The notes under the pieces are model-generated. The model was not told the DNA's origin and ran no database searches. It saw only the letters and a list, made by a program, of their open reading frames with translations. Positions 25,677 to 38,408 of a stretch of DNA of 60,453 nt are shown in pieces; position 1 is the stretch's first letter; every line of letters begins with the position of its first letter. The position numbers and the translations under genes are program-made. Origin of the DNA: Chloroflexota bacterium (GTDB lineage: Bacteria; Chloroflexota; Anaerolineae; Anaerolineales; VGOW01); assembly GCA_016197225.1 (NCBI GenBank), contig JACPWC010000007.1, positions 1-60,453 of the forward strand, in the 5' to 3' direction.

Positions 25677-28600
25677 TCAGCGCCCCGGGCTTTCTTGCAA
25701 GAATTGTAGTCTTTCTTCAGCGGTGAGTTGCCGGGTGATGCGTGACTCGGCAAGGGCAACCAAGTCTTCAACTTGCATCAGATACAGGCGCAAAATACCG
25801 TTGGCATCGGTGGTTGCCAGATATTTTCCGTCCGGGCTGTAAGTAATGCTGAGCAGAGCATACTGCGCCCCGACCAGCCTAATTAATTCCTGTCCGGTTG
25901 CCACATCCCAGATAATGGCAGTCTTATCAACACTGGCGGTGGCAAGCCGCGTACCATCAGGGCTGAAAGCGATATCCTTAACTTCTGCATTGTGTCCATT
26001 GAATACGCGAACCTGCGCGCCGGTTGAAGCATCCCAAAGGCGCGCAGTCTGATCAAGGCTGCTGGTTGCAATCCATTGACCATTTGGGCTGTAGGCCACG
26101 CCGACAACCCCGTCGCCGTGCTTTAGCGTAAATAACGTTTTCCCTGTTCCCACATCCCACACCCGCGCTGTGCCATCCATGCTGGCAGTAACGAGACGCG
26201 TATCGTCCAAACTAAAGGCGGCCTCCAAAATGAAACTCGTGTGATCCTCAAGAGGCGGTTGGATTTCGTCGCCGGTCGCAACGTCCCGGATGTGAACGAG
26301 GTTATCACGTCCGGCAGTGACGACAAGCCGATTGTCGTGGCTGAAAGTCACGGCGTGCATGATCCACCCTCCTGATTCTGTTAATACCTTAATCTCCCTG
26401 CCGCTGTTCGCATTCCAGATACTTACAGTACCATCGTCGCTGGGTGCGGCAATAAGTGAGCCATCTGAGTTGTACGTCGGGTGGCCGACATTGAATAGAT
26501 GGTCGTCCAGGAGCAATGACTCATCATCCGGTTTCTCGATATTCCAGACTCGCACCAATCCATCAGAGCCACCGGTGGCAATGTGACGGCCGTCTGGGCT
26601 GAATGTCGCTACGAGCGGTTGTTCCGAGCCGCTGAAGGCGCGCCACTCGACGCCGGGAGTCGTCTCCCACAAGCGGGCTGTGTTGTCACCTGCTGTGAGG
26701 AGAAGATTAGGGGCGGTTGGGGCAAAGGCAACCGTGTAGATTCCGCTCGTGTGGCCCCGCAGGACGGCTATTTCTTCTCCGGTGGCAACATTCGAGATAC
26801 GCGCCGTTTTGTCCCAACTGGCGGTAGCAATGTAATTGTCATCCGGGCTGAGGGCGGTGGCGCTAATGTACAAACTGTGGCCCGTAAACCGGTGTGACAA
26901 CAACGTTCCACTCGCCGCATCCCAGATGCAGGCATTGTAGTAATAGCCACCTGCTGTTACGAGTATGTCGCCGCTAAGATTGTAGGTCAGGTTAATCGGC
27001 CAACAATCATTGTCGCCGCCAAACTCAAACAACTCCAAACTTGCCGTGGCATCCCAAATGCGCGCTAAACCGTCTCCGCCAATGGTGGCAATTTGTGTGC
27101 CGTCGGAATTGAATGTGGCTGTGACCGGGAAGACGATAGGTGGATAAGCCATCCACTTCCGTCCTTCCCGCCCGGAAGCAGCATCCCAGATACGGACAGT
27201 GCCATCCTCCCCAGCAGTGACAATCAACTTTCCATCTGGCGAAAACTGGGCATCTCTGACAGCGCCTTCATGCCCGTTCAGAGTCTTCATTTCCTGACTC
27301 GTCTCCGCATCCCACACCCGCGCTGTCCCGTCCTTGCTCGCCGTGACCACATACTTGTCATCGGGCGAAAACCGGGCGCTCAAGACCGCGTCGTTATGCC
27401 CGGACAGCACGTAAAGTGCCTCACCCGTCACGGCATTCCAGACGATGGCAGTTTTATCATCGCTGGCGGTGATAATACGTTGACCATCGGTGGAAAATCG
27501 GGCGCTCCAGACTTCGCCGGTATGTCCGCGAAATGCCAATCGAATCTGCGAAGCGCCAAAGGCCTGATGGAGGGCATTCTCAGCTTCAAAGAGGGGGGCT
27601 GTTCGATAAGCTTCCAGAGCAAGCAGAACTGCTCGTTCCGGGTCGGCGTTGATTTGGTTCAAAGCGACCGCCGCCAATTGGCGGGCTAAGGAGATTTGAC
27701 TCTGGCGTTGGGCCTCAGTTGCATTCCGATTGGACAAAACCCCAAAGAACACAGCCGCTACAGCGGCCAACAGGGCCACCGCCCCTACGATGGTGAGCGT
27801 TCGATTACGCGCGCGTAAGCGGGCCGATGACTGTTCGGCCTCTCTCGCCCGTTCGGTTTCTGCTTTGCGGCGGGCTTCGGTTTCCTCGGCCAACTTTCGG
27901 GCGTCATCCAATTCCTTTTGCCGCCGCGCTTCATCTTCCCGTCGTTCACGTTCCACCTCAGCGCGACTCTCGGCCAACAACTGCTCTGCTTCTGCTGTGA
28001 GCCGCAACTCAGCAATGTACGGCTCAATCACCTTCAACCGATCTTCCGTCAGCAGAGTCTTGTAGCGGCGATACGCCCGCGCTTCCTGCTCCAGCAATTC
28101 CTGCGCCGCTTTGCGGGCCTGCACATCCGGGTCAAGTTTGATCTCACCCAGCAAATAATCGTGCGCCAATTCGTAAACCAGACCGTCATCGGTTTCGTTA
28201 GCGCGCAACAGACGGCTGTCTACCAACTGGCTCAAGATGATGTCGAGGGTTTCGGGCGTGACGCCCTTCACTCCCATTTCGGCCACGAGGTCGCGATGGA
28301 GGCGAACGACGCGCTGGGCCTCGGAAGAGATGAGGGTTTCGAGCAGGCGGCGGGCGGCGGCGCGTTGTTCGGGGCGCAAGTCACGCGACAGAACGCGCTC
28401 CAAATGCCCGCGCAAGATTCCGGCGGCCCCCCCTTCACGTTCATAAAGGGCGCGGGTGATGAGGGTCTGCCCGGCTTCAAGTTCTTCAAACAACGAGAGA
28501 CACACCAGTTGAATTTGCGGTGGGGCAATCTCGTTCTTGCCCAAGTCGTCGAGCAAGGCATCAATCAGGCCGGGTTCAAAGGCGAGGCCCTGCCTCTCGG

Positions 28601-29444
28601 CAGGCTTGGCGATCACCTCTTGCGCTTCGACGCGAGTCAAGCGGTTCAGGCGATAGTCGTTCTCGAACGGGCTACGAATGCGCGGACGGAAGTTGGCGAG
28701 ATTGCCGAAGTATTCACTCCGCAAGGCCAGCACCCAGCGCACGTTGAGGCCGTCATCGTACAAGCATTCGGCCAAATCGCCGATAAAAGCCTCTCGGTCG
28801 GTCTCGGCTAATTGTGTAAAGGCCTCTTCAAACTGGTCGAGCAAAATGTAGAGAGTCGTCTGCGCGCCAAGCACATTGCACACTTGCCGCAAGAAATCAC
28901 GCAGAGGCAACTGGCCGGGGTTGGCGATGAAAGCGCGCTTGATGACAACTGAGGGCGAGAGGTTGTAAGGGCGAAGGTACAACGGCAAGTGCCCGGCGGC
29001 GATCAGTTGTGGGGAAAGCCCGGCCTGCAGGAGCGAGGTCTTGCCCGCGCCGGACTCGGAGTGCAGAACGGTGAGCGGGCCACGCCCCAGGTTTTGCAGA
29101 AGGTCGTGGATGGCGCGCTCACGGCCAAAGAACAGTTCGGCGTCGCTCAGTCGGTATTCGAGCAAGCCTTTGTACGGGCCGCCCGTCTTGGCGTCGGCGG
29201 TCTCGCTGGCGCGGGTTTGCAGACGACTGACGAAGGCGCTGACACCCTGCGCCAACTCCTGCCGCTCAAACTCGCGCGCAAGTTTCGCCTCTTCTACGGC
29301 GCTGAGGGCGTGTTGGTAGATGTTCTGAATATTGGTGACGAGCTTGTCACGGCCAACCACATCGCCAGCGCCGATGGTGAGTTGGGCACCTTTGTCGAGG
29401 CTGATACCACCCTGAGAAATATTGCCAGTGAGATCGTCGGCCAT
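25677..29444 (-). CDS. STAND-type NTPase with 14 WD40 repeats (second copy of this architecture)
   Basis: 1255 residues. The N-terminal leader (ISQGGISLDKGAQLTIGAGD then VVGRDK) matches that of the protein at 15469. The NTPase has LFFGRERA (about 108), P-loop SESGAGKTS (about 128-136) and Walker B LYILLDQFEEAF, with a helical region ending VYELAHDYLLGEI. Residues about 440-535 are highly charged coiled coil. One membrane segment (TIVGAVALLAAVAAVFFGVL) is near 545-567. I count 14 WD40 blades from about residue 638; several lack the usual GH dipeptide, so it is more diverged than the first copy. It is probably a membrane-tethered sensor switch in defence or signalling. The NTPase and blade sequences differ enough that the two genes are not a recent duplication. 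Confidence 0.9.
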   Translation of the reverse strand: MADDLTGNISQGGISLDKGAQLTIGAGDVVGRDKLVTNIQNIYQHALSAVEEAKLAREFERQELAQGVSAFVSRLQTRASETADAKTGGPYKGLLEYRLSDAELFFGRERAIHDLLQNLGRGPLTVLHSESGAGKTSLLQAGLSPQLIAAGHLPLYLRPYNLSPSVVIKRAFIANPGQLPLRDFLRQVCNVLGAQTTLYILLDQFEEAFTQLAETDREAFIGDLAECLYDDGLNVRWVLALRSEYFGNLANFRPRIRSPFENDYRLNRLTRVEAQEVIAKPAERQGLAFEPGLIDALLDDLGKNEIAPPQIQLVCLSLFEELEAGQTLITRALYEREGGAAGILRGHLERVLSRDLRPEQRAAARRLLETLISSEAQRVVRLHRDLVAEMGVKGVTPETLDIILSQLVDSRLLRANETDDGLVYELAHDYLLGEIKLDPDVQARKAAQELLEQEARAYRRYKTLLTEDRLKVIEPYIAELRLTAEAEQLLAESRAEVERERREDEARRQKELDDARKLAEETEARRKAETERAREAEQSSARLRARNRTLTIVGAVALLAAVAAVFFGVLSNRNATEAQRQSQISLARQLAAVALNQINADPERAVLLALEAYRTAPLFEAENALHQAFGASQIRLAFRGHTGEVWSARFSTDGQRIITASDDKTAIVWNAVTGEALYVLSGHNDAVLSARFSPDDKYVVTASKDGTARVWDAETSQEMKTLNGHEGAVRDAQFSPDGKLIVTAGEDGTVRIWDAASGREGRKWMAYPPIVFPVTATFNSDGTQIATIGGDGLARIWDATASLELFEFGGDNDCWPINLTYNLSGDILVTAGGYYYNACIWDAASGTLLSHRFTGHSLYISATALSPDDNYIATASWDKTARISNVATGEEIAVLRGHTSGIYTVAFAPTAPNLLLTAGDNTARLWETTPGVEWRAFSGSEQPLVATFSPDGRHIATGGSDGLVRVWNIEKPDDESLLLDDHLFNVGHPTYNSDGSLIAAPSDDGTVSIWNANSGREIKVLTESGGWIMHAVTFSHDNRLVVTAGRDNLVHIRDVATGDEIQPPLEDHTSFILEAAFSLDDTRLVTASMDGTARVWDVGTGKTLFTLKHGDGVVGVAYSPNGQWIATSSLDQTARLWDASTGAQVRVFNGHNAEVKDIAFSPDGTRLATASVDKTAIIWDVATGQELIRLVGAQYALLSITYSPDGKYLATTDANGILRLYLMQVEDLVALAESRITRQLTAEERLQFLQESPGR

Positions 29445-32481: not shown

Positions 32482-33603
32482 CTAACGTTTGCGGCGTTTT
32501 GTTCTAAACTCTAATATACCCACCTGTTTGGTGTTGTGATCTGAAACATAATTGCCTGTGTTAGGGTCACGAATAATTGTCTTTGGAATTTTTACCTTGC
32601 CCTGAGCGAAGGCTTTGCCTTTATCTGTAAGTTGCCGTTTCTTTTTAGCATTTGGAACGTCTTCCACTAAACCCCAAGGCTCGTAACTCAATTTGTTGTG
32701 ATTGCCATAAGCACCATTACCACAAAGGCTACGGATTTCTTCAGGGCTTAATTCTCTTGCCTGACCTTTGTTCCACAATGCTTTAATTATTTCAATGAAG
32801 TATCGCGCAAAACTCTCGCGTCGCGGTTCGAAAAGAGTGTTTCTGACAAAAGGGAACTGAGGCAGTGTATCGCCTAAATGCAGACGAGGTATTGACTCTC
32901 CCGTAGTATAACTTTCAACCAAGGTTCGTAGTGCTGGGAAAATGCCTTGAAGAGTCAGGAACGGAGTTTCTTTTTGAGAGGGAACGCCTCGTCGCGCGGC
33001 TTCGATTAAGTAATGGCTAAATATGCCGCCCCATCGGGTAGTAATAGACGTTTCATTACTCGCGCAGGAACATAACAGAGCATAATTGCTCGCATTGTCC
33101 TTTTGCACTTCTCCACGCATGTTCGTGATGAGCATACTGCTGGGGATGTGCAGGGAGCGACCTGCCATACCGCTATAACATGCGTCAATAATGATTACGG
33201 GGGTTACATTCTTTATAAGCAATGTTTGAAGGATGTCGCTAAAACGCACAACACTCAACGGCAACATTGTCTCTTCAGTCGGATGCCAAACAGTATCAAC
33301 CGTACAGAAGCCAAAATCATTAGAGCCGATTGGAGACCCATGCCCGGAGAAATAAAAAATCAGAATATCGCCATCTGCTGAACGACCCATTGTGTAGTCA
33401 TTTATGGCGTGGCGTAACTGAACAACAGTCGGGTTGATTATAGATTTGAACTGACTGGGCTTGAAGAGAGCCGTGTCTCGGTCTTCTACAAGCAAACTCC
33501 TCAAGTTCTCAACATCATTCGCTGGACCTTCAAGTGGGCCAAGATTCTTATAATGCTCGACGCCGACAGCGAGAATAGTGACACGAGATGTTAGTTGAAG
33601 CAT
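32482..33603 (-). CDS. Caspase-like (C14) peptidase with C-terminal winged-helix-like domain
   Basis: 373 residues. The caspase fold opens with RVTILAVGVEHYKN and ANDVENLRSLL. The catalytic dyad is His88 in YFSGHGSP and Cys142 in IIIDACYSG, both intact, with FSHYLIEAARRG after it. Residues about 270-373 form a second domain: ELSPEEIRSLCGNGAYGN, then LSYEPWGLVEDV, RQLTDKGKAFAQGKVKIPKT. That pattern resembles a winged-helix module seen in phage-type and defence proteins, so DNA binding is possible (inference). Bacterial caspase-like proteases usually act as abortive-infection effectors. It is AT-rich, transcribed divergently from a methyltransferase-nuclease operon, and shares a 118-bp regulatory gap with it. 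Confidence 0.85.
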   Translation of the reverse strand: MLQLTSRVTILAVGVEHYKNLGPLEGPANDVENLRSLLVEDRDTALFKPSQFKSIINPTVVQLRHAINDYTMGRSADGDILIFYFSGHGSPIGSNDFGFCTVDTVWHPTEETMLPLSVVRFSDILQTLLIKNVTPVIIIDACYSGMAGRSLHIPSSMLITNMRGEVQKDNASNYALLCSCASNETSITTRWGGIFSHYLIEAARRGVPSQKETPFLTLQGIFPALRTLVESYTTGESIPRLHLGDTLPQFPFVRNTLFEPRRESFARYFIEIIKALWNKGQARELSPEEIRSLCGNGAYGNHNKLSYEPWGLVEDVPNAKKKRQLTDKGKAFAQGKVKIPKTIIRDPNTGNYVSDHNTKQVGILEFRTKRRKR

Positions 33604-33668
33604 AATTCACCTGCATTCTACAAAACGGGCTTTCCTAAAACAACCTTGTAGTAAGATGATGCAACAGG

Positions 33669-33684
33669 TTGCGTAGTAACGCAA
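33669..33684. promoter_or_regulatory. Perfect 6-bp dyad in the divergent gap; candidate operator
   Basis: TTGCGT (33669-33674) and ACGCAA (33679-33684) flank AGTA. The dyad lies 38 nt before the methyltransferase ATG and 66 nt before the caspase ATG, in a place where one protein could control both. A GGAG ribosome-binding site for the methyltransferase follows at 33711-33714. No regulator gene of the C-protein type is present; the caspase's winged helix is a candidate. Confidence 0.45.
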
Positions 33685-33721
33685 ATGATATAGAATATCA
33701 GTTCTACACCGGAGATAACCT

Positions 33722-34537
33722 ATGAATTATATATACCAAGAAGACAACCTCAATGTGCTCGAAGAATTACATCCTAATTCGGTAGATCTAATTTATATTG
33801 ACCCCCCTTTCAACACGGGCAAATCGCAAAGTAGAACTTATATCAAAGTCAAGCAAACACCTAGTGGAGATCGAGTTGGTTTTAAAGAACAGCGATACGA
33901 AACGATTAATCTTGGAACGAAATCTTATGCTGACAATTTTGGCGATGAATTTCTAGAATTTATGGAACCTCGGCTTCAAGAGGCTAGGAGAGTATTGTCG
34001 GATCGTGGGGCGTTGTATTTTCATATTGACTATAGAGAGGTTCACTACTGCAGGATTCTTCTAGACAAAATCTTTGGCCCAACTAATTTCCTTAATGAAA
34101 TAATTTGGGCATATGATTATGGTGGCAAATCAAAGACACGATGGCCCGCGAAGCACGACAATATACTCGTTTATGTCAAGGACCCAAAGCAATATATCTT
34201 CAATGAACATTCCTTTGCAACACATCCTAAGAGGAAAGGCTCACTCCGTGTTTCGACAGCTGATGTTTGGTGGCATACAATTGTACCAACTGCTAGCAAA
34301 GAAAAAACGGGATACCCTACACAGAAGCCATTAGGCATTATTAACCCAATACTGGAGGTTTCGTCAAATCCAGGCGATGTTGTATTGGATTTTTTTGCGG
34401 GAAGTGGAACGACTGGTGAAGCTTGTTTGCGACTTGGGCGAAAATTCATTTTAGTTGATAACAATCACCAGGCAATAGAAGTAATGAAGAAAAGATTCGG
34501 CGCTCGTGATGATATTACTTGGTATTCCTCGCTATGA
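33722..34537 (+). CDS. DNA methyltransferase, beta class, probably N6-adenine
   Basis: 271 residues, complete. IYIDPPF (DPPF at residues 27-30) is the catalytic motif IV; TQKP (200-203), LDFFAGSGTTGEAC (motif I, 222-235) and ILVDNN complete the SAM site. Motif order IV before I defines the beta class, and Asp-Pro-Pro-Phe favours adenine N6. It is short, with little space for a separate target-recognition domain. Its stop overlaps the ATG of a catalytically dead paralogue (ATGA), so the two are made together and probably form a heterodimer. AT-rich and unlike the flanking genes in codon use. Confidence 0.88.
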   Translation: MNYIYQEDNLNVLEELHPNSVDLIYIDPPFNTGKSQSRTYIKVKQTPSGDRVGFKEQRYETINLGTKSYADNFGDEFLEFMEPRLQEARRVLSDRGALYFHIDYREVHYCRILLDKIFGPTNFLNEIIWAYDYGGKSKTRWPAKHDNILVYVKDPKQYIFNEHSFATHPKRKGSLRVSTADVWWHTIVPTASKEKTGYPTQKPLGIINPILEVSSNPGDVVLDFFAGSGTTGEACLRLGRKFILVDNNHQAIEVMKKRFGARDDITWYSSL

Positions 34538-35340
34538 AGAATCGGATATATTTCGGCGATGACTTGAAAATACTAGAAGAGTTAGATGACGGTTCAGCAA
34601 CTCTTATTTATATAAAGCCGCCTGTGGAAATTGACAATCTTTGGCGATTGCCCCTAAGCAACGAAAGCACCAAAGCGATTACGATTGGCTCCAGAAAATA
34701 TACTGACCTATATGATCAATACTTGGAATTTTTAGAGCCCAGGCTCGTACAAGCTCGCAGGGTTTTGTCATCTAAAGGAACAATTTATTTCCACTCCACT
34801 CCCGAAAAAGCACATTATTGTAAAGCTTTACTATTAGACGAAATTTTCGGGTCAGATAATTTTCTCAATGAAGCCATCTGGGTATATTCGAATACTCGAC
34901 AAAAATCCGAGAGACGATGGCTTGAGAAGCACGACAATATCCTTGTGTACATCAAAGATTTCGACAACTACATCTTCAACACTGATGATATAGATCGACT
35001 CGCTTACATGGCTCCTAATCTCGTCGGAAAAAAGAAAAGGAGCAGGGGAAAGCTACCAACAGATACTTGGTTTGAAGAGTTGACTCCTAATGGGCTTCTC
35101 AGCCAAATTATAAAAGCATCATCGAACCGAAAAGATCTGGTCGTTCAATTGTTTGCTATTGATGGTTCTGTTGGAGAAACCTGTTTGAAGCTGGGGCGGA
35201 AATTTATTCTACTTAGCAACAGCAAGAAAGCGATGAAGAAGACAGCTAAATCACTTGAAGGAAAATCAAATATAGAATGGTTGGAATTCGCAACGCATAG
35301 CAAAGGAAAAAGACGTGGGCCAACAAGAAGCGAGTTCTGA
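34534..35340 (+). CDS. Catalytically inactive methyltransferase paralogue
   Basis: 268 residues from ATG 34534. Co-linear with the preceding enzyme along its whole length: RIYFGDDLKILEEL, LEFLEPRLVQARRVL, NEAIWVYSN, KHDNILVYIKD, CLKLGRKFIL. Every catalytic motif is altered: DPPF is KPPV (28-31), HID is HST, TQKP is gone, FAGSGTTG is FAIDGSVG (207-214) and VDNN is LSNS. The frame is intact and the structural core kept, so this is a maintained pseudoenzyme rather than decay. By analogy with dead subunits of m6A methyltransferases it may recognise DNA or stabilise the active subunit. It overlaps the next gene by 26 nt. Confidence 0.85.
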   Translation: MKNRIYFGDDLKILEELDDGSATLIYIKPPVEIDNLWRLPLSNESTKAITIGSRKYTDLYDQYLEFLEPRLVQARRVLSSKGTIYFHSTPEKAHYCKALLLDEIFGSDNFLNEAIWVYSNTRQKSERRWLEKHDNILVYIKDFDNYIFNTDDIDRLAYMAPNLVGKKKRSRGKLPTDTWFEELTPNGLLSQIIKASSNRKDLVVQLFAIDGSVGETCLKLGRKFILLSNSKKAMKKTAKSLEGKSNIEWLEFATHSKGKRRGPTRSEF

Positions 35341-35869
35341 TTTTGAACTGCTTGCTACTATAACGAGGCACATTCGTCCAGAGTTCGACGAACTCGATGA
35401 GGCCTGGGAAGGTAGTCCCTTTGCTTGGGTGCGAAAGTTGCCGTCTGCTTCTCGTGGCAAAATGGGGAAGCGTATGGTTGCTGCTTGGTGTGCCGCTAAA
35501 GGTTTGATGATCGATTCAAGTAACAACTCTGAAGCAGATTTGTTGCTAAACGGTCATCGCGTAGAAATAAAATTCTCTACGCTTTGGAAAAGCGGTATTT
35601 ACAAGTTTCAGCAGATTCGAGAACAAGATTATGAGTATGCAGTCTGTTTAGGGGTTTCACCATTTCAAGCACATTGTTGGGTTGTAAGCAAGGCTCTGCT
35701 TAGGAAGCAGGTGATTGGGCACAAGCCACAACATAAAGGGGTAGAAGGTACAGATACATTTTGGTTTAGTGTTGACCCCAACAAACCACCTGAATGGATT
35801 GCGAACAGTGGAGGTACATTAGACCAAGCTTTTCAGGTTCTTAAGTCTTTAAGTAGAAAACGAAACTGA
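35315..35869 (+). CDS. Small PD-(D/E)xK endonuclease, probable type II restriction enzyme
   Basis: 184 residues from GTG 35315, overlapping the previous gene by 26 nt. SPFAWVRKLPSASRGKMGKR then leads to the nuclease core: EADLLLNG followed by HRVEIKFS (Asp75, Glu84-x-Lys86) and a later YEYAVCLGVSP. This is the classic acidic cluster of restriction-type nucleases that cut DNA with Mg2+. As the third gene of an operon with an active and an inactive methyltransferase, it is the likely restriction component. Recognition site unknown. The gene is AT-rich. Confidence 0.8.
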   Translation: MGQQEASSDFELLATITRHIRPEFDELDEAWEGSPFAWVRKLPSASRGKMGKRMVAAWCAAKGLMIDSSNNSEADLLLNGHRVEIKFSTLWKSGIYKFQQIREQDYEYAVCLGVSPFQAHCWVVSKALLRKQVIGHKPQHKGVEGTDTFWFSVDPNKPPEWIANSGGTLDQAFQVLKSLSRKRN

Positions 35870-35894: not shown

Positions 35895-38408
35895 CTACCT
35901 CATCAAAGCATCCACTAGCCTCACCGTCAACGCCTTCGATTCCCCGCCATCCGCCCCAACCGGCCCAATGCAGGCCGGGCAACCGTCACTGCACGGGCAG
36001 TCGCGCACCAACTCCAGCGCCCCGCGCAGAAGCTCATCATGCAGTTCGTAGAGCCGCCCGCTCAGGCCGATGCCTTCCGGCACGCCGTCGTAAAACGTGA
36101 TCGTCGGGCCGCCGGTCTCTTTCGATTTCGACTCGACCAGGTTAGAGAGGTCACGCGGGTCGCACATCAGGTAAAGCGGGGCCAGGTTGCCCAGAGCATG
36201 AGCCAGCCCGCCCAGCGCCGATTTGGCGCGATTGGCCGACTCGACTTGGCGATGGCACGACGGGCAGAGCGTCATCAAGTTATCGAGTTCGTTGGCGAGT
36301 TTGTAATTTTCGTTCTCGCCGCGCACGTAGCCAAACTCGCGGAACGGGCGCAGGTGATGGACGTGATGCTGTGGGCCGTCGCGTGGCTCAACGGCGTTGC
36401 ACTGCTGGCAACGGAAGTTGTCGCGAGCACGGGCGGCGTTTCTTTGCGCTTCCCAGTTTGGACCGTAATCGTTCGGCCTAAGCAACACACCCTCGTCCAT
36501 CAACTGCTCGGCGATCTCCGGCGCGATCCACAACCAGTAAGCCGTCGTCTGAAACTCGCGCGGCGGAAGATCAATCTCGCCAAAGCCAACTGTCTCGTGC
36601 GTGTAACGTTTGACTTTGCGATAGCCGCTCGCCTGCGAGGTGACCAACGCCGTGCCGTGCGCCTTGCGCGCCGGGCCGCGTTCGTCGGCGTCGGTCACGT
36701 CCAGCACTTCCAACGTCGCCGACTCGCTGGCCTGGGTGTAATAGTCGGCTTCGGTCGCCGTCACCGTTGCGATGCGTTCATCCCATTTCAACTCGGCGAC
36801 AAGATACTGCCGCCCTTCATGCAGATAGACGGCACCGGTGTGAACGTGAATCGGGGCGCGGACAGAATCCACTTCCCCGATAACGACGGGTTTGCCGTCG
36901 GTCACGTCCTGGATGACGACACGATCATCACCGCTCGTTCTCAGGGATACCGCCTCTGCCGGGTAAGAGTCCCCCACCCACGTCGCCGTTCCACCCGACT
37001 CGTGCACCTCACCCGACTCTTCCAAAATCTCCAACAACGCCTCACCGGCTTCACCAAAAGTTTCGCCTTCTTCAAACGGCAGTTCAAACGCGGCGCAACG
37101 AACGTGGCTGAGCAAAATGGCAAGGTTGTCGGGGTTGATGAGGGCGTGTTCGGGCGACGACTCGAAAATGTAGCGCGGGTGGAGGGCGATGTACTGATCG
37201 AGCGGCGCGGCGGAGGCCACGAAGGCAACGGCTGACGTTTCTGATCGGCGGCCCGCCCGGCCCGCCTGTTGCCACAAACTGGCGATACTGCCGGGGTAGC
37301 CGGCAATCACCGCCGCCCCAAGTTGACCGATGTCCACCCCAAGCTCGAGGGCGTTGGTGGCCACCACGCCGCGCACCGAGCCGTCGCGCAGACCGCGCTC
37401 GATCTCGCGCCGCTCGTTAGGCAGGTAGCCGCCGCGATAGCCGCGAATGGCTTTGGGGTCAATTTGAAATTTCTCCGCCGCGTCGCGCACGTAGCCAAGC
37501 AGAACTTCGACGGTGGCGCGGGCGCGGCCAAACACAACCGTTTGCACACCATCGCCGATAAACTGGGCGGCGATCTCTTTGCTTTCCAACGTGTAAGAGC
37601 GGCGCAGGCCAAGCGCAGGATCGATGAGTGGCGGATTGTAGAGAATGAAATGTTTTTCGGCGCGGGGCGAGCCGTCGTTGCTCACGAGTGTCACCGGCGC
37701 TTCGAGCAGTTTCTCGGCCAGTTCTTTGGGGTTGGCAATGGTGGCCGAGGCGCAGATGAATTGCGGATCACTGCCGTAAAACTTGCAGATGCGTTTCAAG
37801 CGCCGGATGACGTTGGCCACGTGCGAGCCGAACACGCCGCGATAGGTGTGCAGTTCGTCTAGCACCACCCAGCGCAGGTTAGCGAACAACTCTGACCATT
37901 TGGTGTGATGAGGAAGAACGCCGGTATGGAGCATGTCGGGATTAGTTATTAGTAATTGGGCTTCGCGGCGGATAGCGGGACGTTGGTTTTGCGAAGTGTC
38001 GCCATCGTAGATGCGGATGGAGATTTGAGGTTGGAGGTTAGAGGTTAGAGCGCTCAACTCGGCGGCTTGATCCTGGGCAAGGGCTTTGGTGGGGAAGAGA
38101 TAGAGGGCGCGGGCGGAGGAGTCGTGCAAGCATGTTTGCAGAATGGGCAGGTTGTAGCACAGCGTTTTGCCGGAGGCGGTGCCGGTGACGACGACCAGAT
38201 TTTCCCCACGCAAGGCGGCTTCCACTGAGTCGGCCTGGTGGGTGTAGAGCGACGAGATGCCGCGCCGGTTCAGGGCTTCGATCAGCCGCGAGTCGAGTCG
38301 CTTTGGAAAATCGGCGTAGCGCGCCGAGCGCGACGGAATCTTTTCCCAGGCGGCGACGTTGGCCATGAATTTGGGATCGAGGCGCAGGCGATCAAGCAAA
38401 GGCATCAT
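35895..38408 (-). CDS. MrfA/YprA-like DEAD helicase with inserted HNH endonuclease
   Basis: 837 residues. The helicase core has TGTASGKT (about 76-83), DELHTYRG, SATIANP, and domain 2 with ATNALELGVDIG and QQAGRAGR. In the C-terminal DUF1998/MZB-type region a tetracysteine cluster (CPCSDGCPACIGP) is present, as in YprA/MrfA-type repair helicases. Residues about 646-722 contain a complete HNH nuclease: FRCQQCN, QHHVHHLRPF, NLMTLCPSCHRQVE. An HNH insert gives the protein a possible DNA-cutting role in repair or defence. The sequence SALTSNLQPQISIRIYDGDT appears partly derived from a mini-repeat (38030-38053). GC-rich like the core genome, so it is probably older than the adjacent AT-rich module. 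Confidence 0.88.
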   Translation of the reverse strand: MMPLLDRLRLDPKFMANVAAWEKIPSRSARYADFPKRLDSRLIEALNRRGISSLYTHQADSVEAALRGENLVVVTGTASGKTLCYNLPILQTCLHDSSARALYLFPTKALAQDQAAELSALTSNLQPQISIRIYDGDTSQNQRPAIRREAQLLITNPDMLHTGVLPHHTKWSELFANLRWVVLDELHTYRGVFGSHVANVIRRLKRICKFYGSDPQFICASATIANPKELAEKLLEAPVTLVSNDGSPRAEKHFILYNPPLIDPALGLRRSYTLESKEIAAQFIGDGVQTVVFGRARATVEVLLGYVRDAAEKFQIDPKAIRGYRGGYLPNERREIERGLRDGSVRGVVATNALELGVDIGQLGAAVIAGYPGSIASLWQQAGRAGRRSETSAVAFVASAAPLDQYIALHPRYIFESSPEHALINPDNLAILLSHVRCAAFELPFEEGETFGEAGEALLEILEESGEVHESGGTATWVGDSYPAEAVSLRTSGDDRVVIQDVTDGKPVVIGEVDSVRAPIHVHTGAVYLHEGRQYLVAELKWDERIATVTATEADYYTQASESATLEVLDVTDADERGPARKAHGTALVTSQASGYRKVKRYTHETVGFGEIDLPPREFQTTAYWLWIAPEIAEQLMDEGVLLRPNDYGPNWEAQRNAARARDNFRCQQCNAVEPRDGPQHHVHHLRPFREFGYVRGENENYKLANELDNLMTLCPSCHRQVESANRAKSALGGLAHALGNLAPLYLMCDPRDLSNLVESKSKETGGPTITFYDGVPEGIGLSGRLYELHDELLRGALELVRDCPCSDGCPACIGPVGADGGESKALTVRLVDALMR

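What the first reader, a model, noticed from the sequence alone, without database searches (positions are those of the whole stretch)
32482..35869. Divergent caspase plus active/dead methyltransferase pair plus PD-(D/E)xK nuclease: candidate new defence system
Seen: an AT-rich four-gene block in a GC-rich chromosome. On one strand is a caspase-like protease with intact His88/Cys142 and a winged-helix-like tail. On the other is a tightly overlapping operon of methyltransferase, pseudo-methyltransferase and nuclease. The two halves share a 118-bp gap. Known: restriction-modification systems carry a methyltransferase and a nuclease, and bacterial caspases act as abortive-infection proteases. Inference: the protease may be a second line that acts when restriction fails, or may control the operon through its winged helix. 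I know of no described type II system with a dedicated caspase.
Basis: partly seen in the sequence, partly recalled or inferred. Interest (0 to 1): 0.85.

Follow-up and report, generated by a model that had tools for sequence, protein, structure and literature searches.

The report
Restriction-linked caspase with paired methyltransferases
A bacterial DNA-marking and DNA-cutting defence gene set sits back to back with a gene for a self-destruct-type protease, and one relative keeps the protease and the marking enzyme intact without the cutting enzyme, which suggests that the protease works with this defence.

Summary
Window 32482-35869 carries, in a low-GC block, a caspase-fold protein (His88/Cys142 intact, C-terminal winged-helix-like domain) divergent from an overlapping operon of an intact beta-class MTase (M1), a catalytically dead paralogue (M2) and a PD-(D/E)xK endonuclease. 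M1 and the nuclease belong to a known type II family, which lacks a caspase nearby at 16 of 16 other strong loci examined.

The caspase is not a random neighbour. Of six loci with it (window included), five adjoin a DNA MTase; the sixth is cut by a contig end. One MAG of another family of the order repeats all four genes in the same layout. Two loci have caspase and MTase but no nuclease (in one the caspase is broken). One has the caspase in a different (helicase, type IIG-like MTase, Mrr) operon. At what looks like one chromosomal slot, some genomes hold MTase-nuclease genes and others MTase-caspase.

M1 and M2 are eroded in complementary places, suggesting a heterodimer.

Most likely this is a restriction system with a linked proteolytic death effector, PrrC-like in logic. 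Activity, trigger and substrate are untested; the strict four-gene form is seen in two genomes. New variant of a known kind.

The parts
32482..33603 (-). caspase-fold (Peptidase_C14) protein, 373 aa; catalytic dyad H88/C142; C-terminal winged-helix-like domain about aa 262-360
32503..32829 (-). winged-helix-like C-terminal domain (GAYGNHSKLS..PW.L motif), elsewhere also on a PIN_8 protein, on another protein, and alone
33604..33721 (.). 118-bp divergent gap; no conserved operator found
33722..34537 (+). M1, beta-class N6/N4 DNA methyltransferase, motifs IV (DPPF), X (GYPTQKP) and I (FAGSGTT) intact; segment corresponding to RIPYMAPGLVG..GKLPT mostly lost or changed
34534..35340 (+). M2, pseudo-methyltransferase paralogue: DPPF to IKPP, GYPTQKP lost, YMAP..GKLPT segment kept; ATGA overlap with M1 (ORF list gives TTG at 34519)
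35315..35869 (+). PD-(D/E)xK type II restriction endonuclease of PADLOC family PDLC03515 (D75, E84, K86)

Best explanation
A type II restriction-modification system with a linked proteolytic death effector. M1, probably as a heterodimer with M2 (M1 supplying catalysis, M2 part of the site recognition), marks host DNA; the nuclease cuts unmarked DNA; the caspase is kept inactive while the methyltransferase complex and host methylation are intact, and is released when that complex is inhibited, displaced or meets unmarked or damaged DNA, its winged-helix-like domain providing a contact to nucleic acid or to the complex, so that the infected cell dies or stops. Shown here: gene content, intact active sites, layout repeated in a second family, caspase-MTase adjacency, nuclease-free forms, complementary erosion of M1 and M2. 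Inferred: heterodimer, silencing, trigger, protease substrate, cell death.
For: The same CASP<>M1-M2-RE layout in G403/L034, another family of the order, at 51/66/44/67% identity. CASP<>MTase without nuclease in G468/L033 (both genes intact) and G866/L037 (caspase broken), whose assemblies give 0 hits to the nuclease family. A 35% identical caspase with the same architecture in an operon with PLD-SNF2 helicase, type IIG-like MTase and Mrr-like protein (L036). So 5 of 6 such loci (4 of 5 without the window) adjoin a DNA MTase; the sixth, L035, is cut by a contig end. Control: 0 of 8 distant caspase loci (L039-L046, flanks up to 6 kb) and 0 of 6 others (L002, L025-L029, short flanks) have an M1/M2/RE-like ORF nearby. 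Caspase-linked MTases, both M2s and six MTase-nuclease fusions form one supported set (97/90) apart from the other 35 rows. Four of four fusion loci with both flanks lie between the same two marker genes, and MTase<>caspase lies beside one of these markers in L033 and in L037. RM-guarding suicide systems are an established idea (PrrC, PARIS; passages of PMC12707154).
Against: No functional data. Few loci, all in one phylum, mostly fragmented MAGs; the caspase gene is intact in only four (window, L033, L034, L036) and broken or cut in L037 and L035. MTase-RE systems do without the caspase at 16 of 16 loci. The motif of the winged-helix-like domain is nearly unchanged although partner MTases differ, and three genomes carry the domain with no MTase recognised by eye among nearby ORFs, so it cannot be assumed to read the methylated site. 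In L037 the MTase is intact and the caspase broken, so the caspase is dispensable there. Only one copy of the domain in the window genome, so no homotypic partner.
Confidence: 0.42

Rival explanations
1. Protease restriction: the caspase replaces the nuclease as the effector arm. The MTase complex reads unmodified sites and switches on the protease directly; the nuclease of the window is an additional arm.
For: Nuclease-free caspase-MTase loci with intact MTase motifs; caspase and nuclease modules seem to alternate at one chromosomal slot.
Against: Two such loci only, one with a broken caspase; the shared slot rests on one marker side in each; no evidence that MTase binding activates the protease.
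Confidence: 0.2
2. Passenger: an ordinary type II system and an independent caspase toxin that travel together in a small mobile defence cassette, each doing its own job.
For: Low GC/GC3 against the chromosome; nuclease family found without caspase; the caspase also joins a different RM type; the 3' side of the neighbouring helicase differs between two genus mates.
Against: Adjacency to an MTase in 5 of 6 loci, with two unrelated MTase types; same divergent orientation to this MTase clade in 4 of 4 (window, L033, L034, L037).
Confidence: 0.24
3. The caspase is a safety valve: it cleaves nuclease or MTase subunits to limit self-damage, as ClpXP does with HsdR.
For: Proteolytic control of restriction is known for type I systems (passages of PMC12707154).
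Against: Caspase-MTase pairs without any nuclease found.
Confidence: 0.08
4. The caspase is mainly a transcription regulator of the divergent operon through its winged helix.
For: Divergent orientation and winged-helix-like fold.
Against: No conserved operator or palindrome across three gaps; in L036 it lies co-directionally in mid-operon; the catalytic dyad is conserved.
Confidence: 0.06

Closest known systems
Type II R-M, PADLOC MTase_II PDLC03300 + REase_II PDLC03515
   Same: M1 and the nuclease match these models; MTase next to nuclease as at the 16 other loci
   Different: extra dead MTase M2 and divergent caspase; some relatives instead fuse MTase to nuclease and add a second nuclease
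PrrC / EcoprrI (RM-guarding anticodon nuclease)
   Same: logic: suicide protein genetically linked to an R-M enzyme (passages of PMC12707154; start of abstract of PMC2610378 in a listing)
   Different: protease instead of tRNase; type II instead of type IC; silencing not shown
Prokaryotic metacaspases/orthocaspases
   Same: C14 domain and His/Cys dyad; a 2012 survey says that three of 18 DNA-interaction metacaspase operons (217 operons in all) appeared connected to restriction (PMC3501461, one section read)
   Different: this winged-helix-like tail and the MTase pair are not described in the passages I saw; its tables were not open to me
EACC1-associated caspases (NF047832; Kaur et al. 2020, PMC7159879, passages only)
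   Same: same caspase superfamily
   Different: 76.7 bits against a cut-off of 140
Winged-helix-nuclease fusions (PMC11037411, passages only)
   Same: winged helix joined to an effector in restriction; some of these wH domains sense 6mA
   Different: there nucleases in modification-dependent type IV systems; here a protease beside an MTase, methyl sensing untested

Membership tests
Type II restriction-modification | MTase with intact catalytic and SAM motifs | tested here: met
   M1 keeps DPPF, GYPTQKP, FAGSGTT
Type II restriction-modification | adjacent endonuclease with PD-(D/E)xK-type residues | tested here: met
   PDLC03515 7.5e-51; D75, E84, K86 invariant in nine sequences; the fold itself was not modelled
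Type II restriction-modification | site-specific cleavage of unmethylated DNA | not testable with these tools
   none
Peptidase C14 (orthocaspase/metacaspase) | caspase fold and His/Cys dyad | tested here: met
   Pfam 2.8e-20; MALT1/metacaspase fold hits; H88/C142
Peptidase C14 (orthocaspase/metacaspase) | proteolytic activity | not testable with these tools
   none
EACC1-associated caspase (NF047832) | curated score cut-off | tested here: not met
   76.7 bits against 140
PrrC-type RM guard | suicide-type gene linked to an R-M locus | tested here: met
   that the caspase kills is not tested
PrrC-type RM guard | PrrC/RloC nuclease protein | tested here: not met
   no such domain among Pfam or PADLOC hits of the caspase protein
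PrrC-type RM guard | silenced by the R-M enzyme, released by anti-restriction | not testable with these tools
   none
DISARM / BREX | helicase and signature genes as part of the unit | tested here: not met
   no such gene within the four-gene block; the neighbouring helicase 35895-38408 has relatives at 82% and 76% in two genus mates without any of the four genes near

The most novel reading that the evidence does not exclude
A restriction system whose effector is a protease: a DNA methyltransferase marks self, and a caspase-winged-helix protein, not a nuclease, executes the response to unmarked DNA. The window and G403 would be a two-armed form with nuclease and protease and with a split (catalytic plus recognition) methyltransferase.
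Probability: 0.2. Interest if true: 0.88.

Novelty: new variant of a known kind. Interest (0 to 1): 0.62.

Why it matters
If the caspase answers to the methyltransferase, it links two classes of defence usually treated apart, modification-based self-recognition and proteolytic cell death, and adds a protease to the known RM guards. A nuclease-free caspase-MTase pair makes the question testable with two genes. The M1/M2 pair is also a natural example of a catalytic and a pseudo-enzyme MTase subunit that have lost complementary parts, comparable in principle to METTL3/METTL14 (comparison from recall).

Tried and rejected
Winged helix as operator-binding regulator: alignment of three divergent gaps and repeat searches gave nothing conserved; promoter-like (10 against 7.4 expected) and terminator-like sites (4 against 3.7) were near shuffle expectation. 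Winged helix as reader of the methylated site: its most conserved stretch is unchanged with an unrelated MTase (L036) and close to it in three genomes where I recognised no MTase nearby, so I do not rely on it. Homotypic adaptor: one copy in the window genome. Phage or plasmid carriage: no hit of one C-terminal domain sequence in phage or plasmid records, no caspase relative in the viral-contig scan (pattern-based); plasmid caspases (33 records) are all under 60% identical and none covers 80% of the query. M2 elsewhere: in 80 viral loci (the best kept of 159) and at the 16 other MTase-nuclease loci every hit matches M1 better than M2. Solved relatives by sequence: none for the profiles of the C-terminal domain and of the nuclease; the caspase matches metacaspase-1 entries weakly (0.006-0.008). 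Joining contig edges in G864 and G867 in thought, to place caspase or PIN gene beside the MTase-nuclease genes, was considered and dropped as unprovable. Empty site: flanks of the helicase differ in two genus mates, but no clean empty site was found. The second structure job went to the C-terminal domain; M2 and the nuclease were not modelled. Literature: searches showed no paper on a caspase in a type II system among the titles and abstract starts listed; several lists were cut (15 of 69, 12 of 34, 10 of 18, 15 of 18), and only open-licence papers are held.

Full report
What is there. Window 32482-35869 holds four genes with GC 0.40-0.45 and GC3 0.35-0.42, against GC 0.59-0.63 and GC3 0.73-0.77 for four other window genes, three near and one about 9 kb away. 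The caspase gene (373 aa, minus strand) has a Peptidase_C14 domain at 2.8e-20; H88 and C142 are kept in three full-length relatives. The AF2 model (14 aligned sequences, pLDDT 84.4, pTM 0.74) matches MALT1 paracaspase and metacaspases best. By the curated cut-off it is not an EACC1-type caspase (76.7 against 140 bits). Residues about 262-360 form a separate domain, modelled alone at pLDDT 87.5; its ten best Foldseek hits are winged-helix proteins (MarR, TubR, AspA type) at probability 0.96-1.00 but E 0.07-0.20, and its profile has no sequence hit in the PDB. I therefore call it winged-helix-like.

The operon. M1 is a beta-class MTase with all motifs. M2 is its paralogue. The ORF tool starts M2 at a TTG at 34519, but an ATG at 34534 overlapping the M1 stop as ATGA is the likelier start, and the M1 and M2 ORFs of L031 overlap by the same 4 bases. 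The nuclease matches PADLOC REase_II PDLC03515 at 7.5e-51, with D75, E84 and K86 invariant in nine sequences, window included.

M1 and M2 are eroded in complementary places. I took 24 single-copy family MTases: 20 from loci of this phylum and four of the 23 viral rows of the tree; 19 viral rows were left out. Of 120 columns at least 90% conserved in them, window M1 keeps 99, L034 M1 100, window M2 70 and L034 M2 73. In the 16 conserved columns of the RIPYMAPGLVG..GKLPT segment (chosen after seeing the result; probably target recognition, by its place before motif X) window M1 departs in 15 and L034 M1 in 11, the two M2s in 3 each. Outside it the M1s depart in 6 and 9 of 104, the M2s in 47 and 44. 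Both M2s have IKPP in place of DPPF and lack GYPTQKP. The same losses in two proteins only 44% identical point to a conserved pseudo-subunit rather than recent decay. The heterodimer is inferred.

The type II family without caspase. PDLC03515 was found in 15 of 400 phylum genomes and 15 of 396 class genomes, the window genome counted in both; seven places in the first search and four in the second are weak (E above 1e-13) and were not followed. All 16 other genomes with a strong match were fetched with wider flanks: 12 loci have a single MTase plus nuclease, 4 an MTase-nuclease fusion plus a second nuclease; none has a caspase hit in the fetched flank (some flanks are short, L164 is a 3.7-kb contig). 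Two more fusion loci (L175, L177) were found later in genomes that carry a PIN or caspase protein with this tail on another contig.

The caspase and its neighbours. In 151 genomes of the order there are, besides the window, two full-length relatives (51-52% identity) and weak matches in four other genomes. A pattern-based scan of the collection of 84,980 species returned 14 loci, six close and eight distant. The six: L034 (=G403), CASP<>M1-M2-RE; L033 (=G468), CASP<>MTase, next gene bioY-like, no nuclease; L037, MTase divergent from a caspase gene with a frame break whose contig ends inside it, no nuclease seen; L036, caspase between a type IIG-like MTase and an Mrr-like protein (PADLOC PDC-S02), with a PLD-SNF2 helicase upstream; L035, a caspase cut or broken at the contig start; L038, the same C-terminal domain on a PIN_8 protein at a contig start. 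With the window, five of six caspase loci adjoin a DNA MTase (four of five without it); the sixth, L035, cannot be judged on its cut side. The gene is intact in four (window, L033, L034, L036). The nuclease family is absent from the G468 and L037 assemblies, absent from the L036 one, present in G403, and present on other contigs in the L035 and L038 genomes; G468 is 88% complete, and completeness of the L037 genome is not given. Control: 0 of 8 distant caspase loci (flanks up to 6 kb) and 0 of 6 others (short flanks) have an M1/M2/RE-like ORF nearby; other kinds of MTase were not tested there. The viral-contig scan gave no caspase relative.

One slot, two effectors. Gene names in this paragraph are from the look of the sequences, not from a family search. 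In L152, L161, L162 and L163 the MTase-nuclease genes lie between an L,D-transpeptidase-like gene and an OmpR-like regulator gene. L037 has MTase<>caspase beside the same transpeptidase and NAD synthase genes; the best match to the regulator in that genome ends 169 bases from another contig's end, which fits the same slot but does not prove it. L033 has CASP<>MTase beside the same regulator and an imidazolonepropionase-like gene, and L175 has fusion and nuclease beside the same two. In the MTase tree (47 rows) the four caspase-linked MTases, both M2s and the six fusions form one set with support 97/90, apart from the other 35; the caspase-linked ones are not one group within it, and the M2s are long branches whose place is unsure.

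The C-terminal domain is wider than caspases. At E 0.001 it is in 1 of 396 class genomes, the window's own; a phylum sample at E 0.01 gave 4 of 400, the window and three genomes of another family, and 3 of 9 genomes of that family have it. Two carry it as a 123-aa protein near macro-domain and nucleotidyltransferase genes (Pfam); one has it at the end of a 418-aa protein without Pfam hits, membrane-like by eye, beside large STAND/TPR-like genes (by eye). I recognised no MTase among the ORFs within about 5.5 kb (by eye). So the domain can join caspase, PIN or other proteins. Its motif hardly changes with the partner MTase, which argues against its reading one methylated site.

How it most likely works. 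I commit to a restriction-linked death protease held in check by an intact MTase complex and methylation (0.42). PrrC is the model: linked to an R-M enzyme and activated when that enzyme is inhibited (passages of PMC12707154). The nuclease-free forms tie the caspase to the MTase rather than to the nuclease and leave open the bolder reading that the protease itself is the restriction effector (0.20). A passenger role in a mobile cassette remains possible (0.24).

What is known in print. Eight searches of open-licence papers listed no description of a caspase in a type II system; some lists were cut. A 2012 survey states that three of 18 DNA-interaction metacaspase operons, of 217 operons, appeared connected to restriction (PMC3501461, one section read); its tables were not open to me, so overlap cannot be excluded. 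A caspase homologue that cleaves an antitoxin is known (PMC7935541, title and start of abstract in a listing).

Noticed in passing
window 25677-29444 (-): nSTAND1 NTPase with many WD40 repeats, another likely conflict-system protein about 3 kb from the block.
   Followed up: partly
window 35895-38408 (-): Helicase with WHD_HRQ1, MZB (MrfA) and HNH domains; relatives in two genus mates at 82% and 76%, with different genes on the 3' side.
   Followed up: partly
L152, L161, L162, L163, L175, L177: MTase-nuclease fusion plus a second, separate nuclease gene (cut off in L177): possibly a nuclease heterodimer, another route to asymmetry besides M1/M2.
   Followed up: partly
L036 2524-8873 with L179 1324-4674: Operon of PLD-SNF2 helicase, type IIG-like MTase, caspase with the same tail, Mrr-like PDC-S02 protein and an Mrr_N protein.
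   Followed up: partly
L038 1-693: PIN_8 domain joined to the same winged-helix-like tail at a contig start; the genome's MTase-nuclease genes lie at another contig's edge (L175).
   Followed up: partly
L123 4982-8797: Four MTase genes of about 300-335 aa in tandem in a viral contig.
   Followed up: no
L037 5992-6557: Caspase gene broken while the divergent MTase is intact; the record is titled Chloroflexus, yet its flanking genes match those of the window's order.
   Followed up: partly
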